Positions 23,177 through 26,474 of a stretch of DNA of 64,000 nt are shown one piece after another (position 1 is the first letter of the stretch; each line of letters begins with the position of its first letter). A program made the translations under genes and the position numbers. The notes beneath the pieces were generated by a model. The model was not told the DNA's origin. It worked only from the letters and a program-made list of their open reading frames with translations, and did no database searches. Source of the DNA: an uncultured Campylobacterales bacterium (GTDB lineage Bacteria; Campylobacterota; Campylobacteria; Campylobacterales; Arcobacteraceae); NCBI GenBank assembly GCA_947503785.1, contig CANNFB010000009.1, forward strand, positions 37,037 through 101,036, in the 5' to 3' direction.

Positions 23177-24541
23177 ATGAAGAATTGGGAACCAAATAGT
23201 TGGAGAGACTTTCCAATAAAACAACAACCAACTTATACTGATTTAGATAAGTTAAACAAAGTAGAAAAAGAACTAGGTTCATATCCTCCACTTATTTTTG
23301 CAGGAGAAGCTTTAAATTTAAAGAATCAATTAGCTGATGTAGTAAATGGTAAAGCTTTCTTACTTCAAGGTGGAGATTGTGCTGAATCTTTTGCTTCATT
23401 TGATGCAAATAATATTAAGAATTTGTTTAAAGTTATGATGCAAATGTCTGTAGTTTTAACATTCTCAGGAGGATGTCCTGTTGTTAAAGTTGGACGAGTT
23501 GCTGGCCAATTTGCAAAACCTAGATCTTCTGATTTTGAAGAAATAAATGGAATTTCATTGCCTTCTTATAGAGGAGATATTGTAAATGATATTGAATTTA
23601 ATGAAAAATCAAGAGGTCCAAAACCTAAAAAGTTATTAAAAGCATATAATCAAAGTGCTGCAACGATGAACTTACTTCGAGCTTTTTCTCGTGGAGGTAT
23701 GGCTGATTTAAATCAAGTACATTTATGGAATACAGACTTTGTAAATGATAATACTTTAGGTGAAAAATATAATGAGGTATCGCATAAAATTACTGAAGCA
23801 CTTAATTTTATGAAAGCTTGTGGAATTACAAGTCAAACAACTCCAAACTTAGCTCAAACAACACTATTTACTTCACATGAAGCATTGTTATTAAACTATG
23901 AACAAGCACTAACTAGAAGAGATTCAATTACTGGTGATTGGTTTAACTGTGCCGCTCATATGTTATGGATAGGTGATAGAACAAGAGATTTAAAAGATGC
24001 TCATATTGAATATTTTAGAGGGATTAAAAATCCAATTGGATGTAAAGTAGGACCTTCTATGAAAGAAGATGAATTGATTCAGTTAATTGATACTTTAAAT
24101 CCAGAGAATGAAGCGGGAAGACTAAACTTAATTGTGCGAATGGGTGCAAATAAAGTTGGAGATTTCTACCCAAAATTACTTGAAAGAGTAAAAAGAGAAG
24201 GGAAAAATGTATTATGGTCATGTGACCCAATGCATGGAAATACTATTAAAGCTGATAATGGTTATAAAACTAGAGATTTTGAAGCAATATTATCTGAAGT
24301 AAAACAGTTCTTTCAAATCCATAGAGCTGAAGGTACTTATGCTGGTGGTATTCACTTAGAAATGACTGGTCAAGATGTAACTGAGTGTACAGGAAGTGCA
24401 AGTTCAGCAGTTACTACTGAAGGACTAGCATCTCGATATCATACTCAATGTGACCCAAGATTAAATGCTGACCAAGCACTTGAGTTATCATTTATGATTG
24501 CAGATACTTTAAAAGAAGCTAGAAAAGATTTAATTATATAA
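23177..24541 (+). CDS. aroG: class II 3-deoxy-7-phosphoheptulonate synthase
   Basis: [46 protein letters not shown]. Confidence 0.95.
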
Positions 24542-24565
24542 TTAAATCTTTTAAGTTTTTAGCAT

Positions 24566-24602
24566 AAAAAAAGGGAGATAGTTTTACTATCTCCCTTTTT
24601 TT
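24566..24602 (+). terminator. intrinsic terminator after aroG (probably bidirectional)
   Basis: GGGAGATAG-TTTTA-CTATCTCCC flanked by A and T runs. Confidence 0.9.
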
Positions 24603-24623
24603 ATCTCTAATTTTTTTAGATGA

Positions 24624-24965
24624 TTATAAAAAAGTTTCTTTATAAATCTCTTCTTTAAAAGCTACTAAAACTTTTCCATCATATTCAACTAGAGGTCTTT
24701 TTAAGAGCATAGGCTCTTTTTTTAACCACTGTATTTTCCCATCATCATCTAAATTTAACTCTTTTAATTTTAAAGTTCTATATTTAGTACCTCTTGAATT
24801 AAATAGTAAATTTATATCTGCTTTTTCTACCCATGAATCTATTAGATCTGAAGTTGGTAATTCTTTTTTAAAATCAAAAAATTCAACGTCTATTTCGTTG
24901 TCCTTAAAAAACCTTAAGGCTTTTCTAACAGAGTCTCAGGTTTTTATTCCATAAACCTTAAACAT
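24624..24965 (-). CDS. ArsC/Spx/MgsR family protein with in-frame TGA at codon 10 (candidate selenoprotein)
   Basis: Reverse strand: MFKVYGIKT-(TGA)-DSVRKALRFFKDNEIDVEFFDFKKELPTSDLIDSWVEKADINLLFNSRGTKYRTLKLKELNLDDDGKIQWLKKEPMLLKRPLVEYDGKVLVAFKEEIYKETFL*; TGA (24936-24938) sits at the family's redox Cys; rest of frame intact. Confidence 0.85.
24896..24938 (-). promoter_or_regulatory. candidate bacterial SECIS element just 3' of the UGA
   Basis: TGA GACTCTGTTAGAAAAG CCTTAA GGTTTT TTAAGG AC AAC: 6-bp stem, 6-nt loop starting GG, loop begins 22 nt after TGA; possible outer GTT/AAC pairing. Confidence 0.7.
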
Positions 24966-24973
24966 TTTTCTTC

Positions 24974-25264
24974 CTATTCTATAATTTTTGGTACGACAAA
25001 AAACCCATCTTCACTTTTTGGTGCATGATCTAAAATGTGTTTTGATAGTTCTAAGTCTTGATTTGCGTTATCTTCTCTAAGTGGTGTTCCACCCTCAATT
25101 GTACTAAATGTAGCTTCAATATTTGATACATCTATCTCATTTAAGTTTTCAACAAAGTTAATAATATCAGCAAGTTCTGCTTTTAAATTTTCTTTTTTTG
25201 ACTCATCTATTTCTAAACTAGATAGTTTTGATAGTTTTGCAATTAAGTTATCATCAACAGTCAT
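24974..25264 (-). CDS. gatC: Asp/Glu-tRNA amidotransferase subunit C
   Basis: 96 aa, LSSLEIDE...ADIINFVENLNEIDVSNIEATFST...LREDNANQ. Confidence 0.93.
   Translation of the reverse strand: MTVDDNLIAKLSKLSSLEIDESKKENLKAELADIINFVENLNEIDVSNIEATFSTIEGGTPLREDNANQDLELSKHILDHAPKSEDGFFVVPKIIE

Positions 25265-25328: not shown

Positions 25329-26474
<1,146 letters not shown>

What the first reader, a model, noticed from the sequence alone, without database searches (positions are those of the whole stretch)
24624..24965. Unannotated candidate selenoprotein: ArsC/Spx-family protein with UGA at the redox cysteine position
Seen: on the minus strand a continuous 114-codon frame (113 aa) has one TGA at codon 10 (24936-24938): MFKVYGIKT-TGA-DSVRKA..., ending TAA at 24624. 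ArsC/Spx-family proteins normally have Cys here (YGIKxCDxxRKA). The deduced protein has no Cys elsewhere, so Sec would be its only chalcogen redox residue. Everything downstream reads as an intact ArsC/Spx protein (LFNSRGTKYRTLKLKELNLDDDGKIQWLKKEPMLLKRPLVE), arguing against decay. The ORF track misses it because of the TGA. Inference: Sec insertion.
Basis: partly seen in the sequence, partly recalled or inferred. Interest (0 to 1): 0.88.

Follow-up and report, generated by a model that had tools for sequence, protein, structure and literature searches.

The report
Selenocysteine version of YffB/ArsC-family protein
A small redox-type gene that looks broken by a stop codon in this marine Arcobacter relative almost certainly carries the rare amino acid selenocysteine at its active site, and close relatives show bacteria switching that site between selenium and sulfur while still carrying the old RNA signal.

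Summary
On the minus strand (24965-24624) one reading frame encodes a 113-residue YffB-type protein of the ArsC/Spx fold, with an in-frame TGA (24938-24936) where relatives have cysteine. The genome carries tRNA-Sec (anticodon TCA), selA, selB and selD, and its selD and an fdhA are themselves selenoprotein genes. In 90 orthologs of the family (Arcobacter relatives) this codon is TGA (18), TGT (64) or TGC (8), never anything else. All 18 TGA genes have a 6-bp hairpin with the loop guanosine expected of a bacterial SECIS; none of 65 Cys genes outside the window's genus has both. The hairpin shows compensatory changes and in one gene survives a paired +1/-1 indel that alters the protein. The strain is the only Sec form in its immediate clade, but five of seven Cys neighbours keep the complete hairpin as a 'ghost' SECIS. 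Sec forms are not one clade (AU p=0.0015), so the site switched repeatedly. Sec ArsC-family proteins are already known (UxxS, UxxC motifs); this YffB-type UDSV form and the ghost SECIS were not found in the literature searched. Substrate and electron donor are unknown; arsenate reduction is unlikely.

The parts
24624..24965 (-). Complete reading frame of the candidate selenoprotein (113 aa, YffB/ArsC family, Sec10)
24936..24938 (-). In-frame TGA, codon 10, read as selenocysteine (inferred); motif G6-x3-U10-x3-R14
   Evidence: 18 TGA / 64 TGT / 8 TGC at this codon in 90 orthologs
24902..24919 (-). SECIS apical hairpin CCUUAA-GGUUUU-UUAAGG; 16 nt lie between the TGA and the stem, 22 nt between the TGA and the loop G
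   Evidence: 18/18 Sec genes versus 0/65 Cys genes outside the genus; two compensatory base pairs
24974..25264 (-). gatC, directly upstream (8-nt gap to the ATG); found upstream of the ortholog in 89 of 90 family genomes
25329..26450 (-). tgt (queuosine tRNA-guanine transglycosylase), upstream on the same strand
24564..24604 (.). Inverted repeat with T-rich flank just past the stop codon; probable terminator shared with the convergent DAHP synthase gene (23177-24541, +)

Best explanation
The gene encodes a selenoprotein. The mRNA hairpin just after the UGA acts as a SECIS: SelB carrying Sec-tRNA-Sec binds it, and the ribosome reads UGA at codon 10 as selenocysteine instead of stopping. The product is a YffB-type ArsC-fold protein whose only redox residue is Sec10, at the N-terminus of helix 1, followed by Arg14 (U-x3-R). 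It most likely works as a one-residue selenol redox protein: Sec10 attacks a disulfide, sulfenate or oxidised small molecule, forms a selenenyl-sulfide with a small or protein thiol, and is released by a second thiol. Sec forms in this family probably arose from Cys ancestors that acquired a SECIS within the coding sequence, and several lineages have since gone back to Cys. Shown by sequence: the frame, the codon alternation, the hairpin and its covariation, the machinery, the repeated switching. Inferred: actual Sec insertion, the enzymology, the direction of individual switches.
For: Machinery in the same genome: tRNA-Sec with anticodon TCA next to selA, selB 290.7 bits, selD 347 bits with its own TGA, fdhA with TGA in the motif HQARI-U-HSS. 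Codon 10 is only TGA, TGT or TGC in 90 orthologs. selB passes its cut-off in 16 of 18 TGA genomes; G006 has a selB fragment and G086 is a 74% complete assembly. Hairpin plus loop G in 18/18 Sec genes, 0/65 Cys genes outside the genus (Fisher p about 1e-18, which ignores relatedness). Residue 18 is Lys in 64 of 65 such Cys genes but Arg or Ser in 17 of 18 Sec genes, a change that puts G in the loop; the remaining Sec gene (G076) keeps Lys but has shifted its hairpin by a paired +1/-1 indel and so keeps the G. Two compensatory pairs, 100% pairing, 0 of 500 shuffles as high on pairing or covariation score. Codons 14-22 show no differences from G002 and G006, although the rest of the gene differs at 23-24% of sites. 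TGA occurs in single-contig genomes G002 and G045, so it is not an assembly error. Fold: pLDDT 96, best structural match P. aeruginosa YffB 1rw1 at TM 0.91.
Against: No Sec has been measured in any of these proteins. Relatedness inflates the counts: the 18 Sec genes represent perhaps a handful of independent lineages. RNAfold does not always return the 6-bp hairpin as the minimum-energy fold of 48 nt; in several sequences a competing register pairs GAAAAGCC with GGUUUUUU. The UGA-to-loop distance (22 nt) is longer than in this genome's selD (17) and fdhA (18). The own-genome search with the hairpin model finds this gene alone with confidence, so it does not recover selD or fdhA. The enzymatic proposal rests on homology to proteins whose function is itself unproven.
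Confidence: 0.95

Rival explanations
1. The TGA is a true stop and the gene is a recent pseudogene or truncated remnant in this strain.
For: The seven closest relatives encode Cys, so the strain is a lone TGA carrier in its clade.
Against: The same TGA occurs in 17 other genomes (eight genera in all), always at this codon. The downstream frame is intact and under purifying selection. The hairpin is linked to TGA.
Confidence: 0.02
2. UGA is read through by some other route (near-cognate Trp or Cys tRNA, or general UGA reassignment) rather than as Sec.
For: None specific; read-through occurs at some level everywhere.
Against: A complete Sec system exists in the genome. UGA at this site alternates only with Cys codons, never Trp. 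The hairpin accompanies TGA and not TGT/TGC outside the genus.
Confidence: 0.02
3. Sequencing or assembly error turned TGT or TGC into TGA.
For: The window's genome is a 54-contig draft, and near relatives have Cys.
Against: Independent genomes, including the single-contig G002 and G045, carry TGA in the same or nearly the same 42-nt context.
Confidence: 0.02
4. It is a selenoprotein, but one that works as a selenium-dependent arsenate reductase of the classical ArsC kind, or as a Spx-type transcription regulator.
For: ArsC Pfam family; the TIGR01617 model carries the Spx/MgsR name; Spx and E. coli ArsC structures match at TM 0.73-0.84.
Against: The arsC equivalog model scores 36.7 against a cut-off of 106 and Spx models about 19-23 against 123-159. 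There is no CxxC or UxxC. YffB proteins keep only one of the three arginines of the E. coli arsenate site (PMC3169414). The neighbours are tgt and gatC, not ars genes.
Confidence: 0.08

Closest known systems
Sec-containing arsenate reductase (COG1393 / pfam03960, UxxS) of the Sargasso Sea and GOS selenoproteomes, and ArsC-like selenoproteins of Desulfotalea and Desulfuromonas (PMC1088965, PMC2398784, PMC1794560)
   Same: Same protein superfamily, Sec at the catalytic Cys, bacterial SECIS downstream of the UGA
   Different: Motif UxxS and assigned to TIGR00014 in a later review; here the motif is UDSV (U-x3-R) and TIGR00014 is far below its cut-off; no ars context
ArsC-related selenoprotein with UxxC (cd03032 / NF041106)
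   Same: ArsC/Spx fold with Sec at the N-terminal redox position
   Different: NF041106 scores 19.5 against a cut-off of 85 here; no second redox Cys three residues on
YffB, P. aeruginosa 1rw1 and B. melitensis 2kok (PMC3169414)
   Same: Fold (TM 0.91 to 1rw1), length, single catalytic chalcogen with Gx3(C/U)x3(R/K)
   Different: Cys, not Sec; glutathione binding was shown for them, whereas no glutathione synthetase above cut-off was found in this genome
Epsilonproteobacterial selenoproteins FdhA, SelD, SelW, DUF466, C. curvus peroxidase (PMC4607533)
   Same: Same lineage, same decoding system, 5/6-bp apical hairpin with an invariant loop guanosine
   Different: The main text of that survey does not mention ArsC, arsenate or Spx

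Membership tests
Bacterial selenoprotein | In-frame UGA aligned with Cys in homologs | tested here: met
   18 TGA, 64 TGT, 8 TGC, nothing else
Bacterial selenoprotein | SECIS hairpin shortly after the UGA, with a guanosine in the loop | tested here: met
   the bSECISearch program itself was not available
Bacterial selenoprotein | SelA, SelB, SelD and tRNA-Sec in the genome | tested here: met
   (selA named from its sequence next to tRNA-Sec, not by a model)
Bacterial selenoprotein | Selenium actually present in the protein | not testable with these tools
   needs 75Se labelling or mass spectrometry
YffB-type ArsC family | ArsC fold and sequence family, nearest solved structures YffB | tested here: met
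YffB-type ArsC family | PRK10853 (NF008107) equivalog cut-off | tested here: not met
   70.6 against 121 bits; hence 'YffB-type', not the E. coli equivalog
YffB-type ArsC family | Glutathione binding | not testable with these tools
   no gshB above cut-off in the genome, so another thiol is likelier
Classical arsenate reductase ArsC (TIGR00014) | Model cut-off | tested here: not met
   36.7 against 106.05 bits
Spx regulator | CxxC switch and Spx model cut-offs | tested here: not met
   motif UDSV; Spx models 18.5-22.7 against 123-159 bits; TIGR01617, a broader subfamily model bearing the Spx name, is met
ArsC_rel_Se_1 (NF041106) | Model cut-off and UxxC | tested here: not met
   19.5 against 85 bits

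The most novel reading that the evidence does not exclude
Within one genus the catalytic residue of this protein has changed from Sec to Cys several times (TGA to TGC and to TGT separately) while the Sec machinery was kept, leaving intact or decaying 'ghost' SECIS hairpins. A retained hairpin would also let a single base change restore Sec, so the site may work as a reversible Sec/Cys switch. This would be a bacterial Sec-to-Cys case outside FdhA and SelD, caught in progress.
Probability: 0.6. Interest if true: 0.65.

Novelty: new member of a known kind. Interest (0 to 1): 0.52.

Why it matters
It adds a Sec-bearing YffB-type protein to the selenoproteome of a marine bacterial group, in a gene that ordinary ORF calling misses. 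It also offers a natural series (Sec with SECIS; Cys with intact SECIS; Cys with decaying SECIS; Cys without) in closely related species. A 2026 review states that Sec-to-Cys changes in bacteria are rare and documented mainly for FdhA and SelD (PMC13188914), so this series makes the Sec/Cys exchange question directly testable.

Tried and rejected
Pseudogene, sequencing error and non-Sec read-through: rejected on recurrence, linkage with the hairpin and purifying selection. Classical arsenate reductase and Spx: model cut-offs not met. Searching the own genome with the hairpin model for further selenoproteins: only this gene scored well (68.7 bits); a frame test found no plausible TGA gene at the four weaker full-length places examined. 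A pattern search for the TGA motif over 399 genomes of the order found it in ArsC-type genes of the own family only; the other two matches (G046, G245) have no coherent frame. The pattern is strict and misses some true cases such as G068, and the protein match table is cut off, so Sec forms outside the family are not excluded.

Full report
Observation. The minus-strand frame 24965-24624 is exactly as described: 113 residues with one TGA at codon 10. The ordinary ORF list omits it. The protein belongs to the ArsC family (Pfam 64 bits, cut-off 24; TIGR01617 86.8, cut-off 75.05), but is far below the cut-offs for arsenate reductase, Spx and the known ArsC-related seleno model NF041106.

Host. The window lies in a 2.76-Mb draft genome. 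The nearest named relatives in the collections are Poseidonibacter lekithochrous and P. ostreae, so the host is most likely a Poseidonibacter. This is inferred; the record carries no name.

Sec machinery. The genome has tRNA-Sec with anticodon TCA beside a selA gene, selB and selD. selD is itself interrupted by TGA in the motif AG-U-AAK, and an fdhA gene has TGA in HQARI-U-HSS; both are the usual Sec positions of those enzymes (own knowledge). Sec decoding is therefore expected to be in use.

Codon alternation. In 104 genomes of the family, 96 have a match. Of 90 orthologs read at the codon, 18 have TGA, 64 TGT and 8 TGC. TGA genomes belong to eight genus codes (g1, g2, g4, g5, g7, g10, g15, g19). 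selB passes its cut-off in 16 of the 18; one has a selB fragment and one is a 74% complete assembly. 50 of the 72 Cys genomes also have selB, so Cys forms are not explained by loss of the machinery alone.

SECIS. All 18 TGA genes have the stem CCUUAA/UUAAGG, or its compensated variants CUUUAA/UUAAAG and CUUUGA/UCAAAG, with G at the first loop position. None of 65 Cys genes outside the genus has both features. Two of the six pairs vary, always on both sides. The control matters here, because the peptide LKFFK is by nature nearly self-complementary in DNA: 16 of 65 Cys genes can form all six pairs, but none of those 16 has the loop G. Residue 18 is Lys in nearly all Cys proteins and Arg or Ser in 17 of 18 Sec proteins, so the protein sequence appears to have yielded to the RNA signal. 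In G076 a base has been gained before the hairpin and one lost in its loop: the frame is kept, the peptide changes from RKALRFF to RNSLKFF, and the hairpin and loop G persist. This is the clearest single sign that the RNA is under selection. The invariant loop guanosine and 5/6-bp hairpin are the features described for SECIS elements of this lineage (PMC4607533).

Ghost SECIS and switching. The window's strain sits among seven Cys-encoding species. Five of these keep the full hairpin and loop G; one (G003) has lost only the loop G; one (G001) has a broken stem. Across codons 14-22 six of the seven differ from the window at no more than one base (three at none), but short divergence makes that comparison weak on its own. 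Against G002 and G006, both Sec, the same stretch shows no difference while the rest differs at 23-24%. On a tree of GatC plus this protein with codons 10-24 removed, five changes between Sec and Cys are needed at best, at least three are forced by well-supported branches, and a tree with all Sec forms in one clade is rejected (p-AU 0.0015). Two histories fit the window's clade: at least three separate Sec-to-Cys changes, or one Sec-to-Cys change followed by a return to Sec in this strain. Both involve loss of Sec with the signal left behind. The short alignment and possible recombination limit this inference.

Distribution. Outside the family, all listed orthologs of the order are free of stops (table cut off), and the strict TGA pattern found no other ArsC-type case. 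The simplest reading is that Cys is ancestral to the whole group and Sec arose inside this family.

Function. The model is confident (pLDDT 96) and matches P. aeruginosa YffB (1rw1) best. Residue 10 lies at the start of helix 1. YffB proteins bind glutathione next to Gx3Cx3K and are proposed to be glutathione-dependent thiol reductases; they keep only one of the three arginines of the arsenate site (PMC3169414). No glutathione synthetase above cut-off was found here (gshA was not searched), so another thiol or a protein thiol probably resolves the selenenyl intermediate. The gene follows tgt and gatC and ends at a probable terminator; gatC precedes it in 89 of 90 family genomes. This looks like a housekeeping operon, not an arsenic locus. 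The substrate is unknown.

Novelty. Sec in ArsC-family proteins has been known since 2005 (UxxS, PMC1088965; UxxS and UxxC, PMC2398784; ArsC-like, PMC1794560). The survey of epsilonproteobacterial selenoproteins does not mention ArsC, arsenate or Spx in its main text (PMC4607533). I found no report of this YffB-type form in the open-access library searched, which does not hold most subscription papers; NCBI may also have annotated some of these genes. I therefore file it as a new member of a known kind, with the ghost-SECIS series as the most interesting part.

Noticed in passing
L050 (G000:C17:1049-1969, -) and L143 (G000:C17:21946-23475, +): selD and an fdhA on the same contig both carry an in-frame TGA at the usual Sec positions; other Sec genes may lie on this contig.
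   Followed up: partly
L074 (G069:C2:47247-47582): The Cys ortholog of G069 has a TAA eight codons before the usual end, followed in frame by the normal C-terminal residues (DMYKETFL): a possible C-terminally trimmed copy. This genome also holds a second, 44% identical paralog without stops.
   Followed up: partly
genus code g10 genomes G063, G064, G066, G067, G069, G070, G074, G077, G078: A second ArsC/YffB paralog (34-44% identical to the query, no stops) is present in many genomes of this genus.
   Followed up: no
window 24564-24604: Strong inverted repeat (19 pairs) between two convergent genes; probable bidirectional terminator.
   Followed up: no
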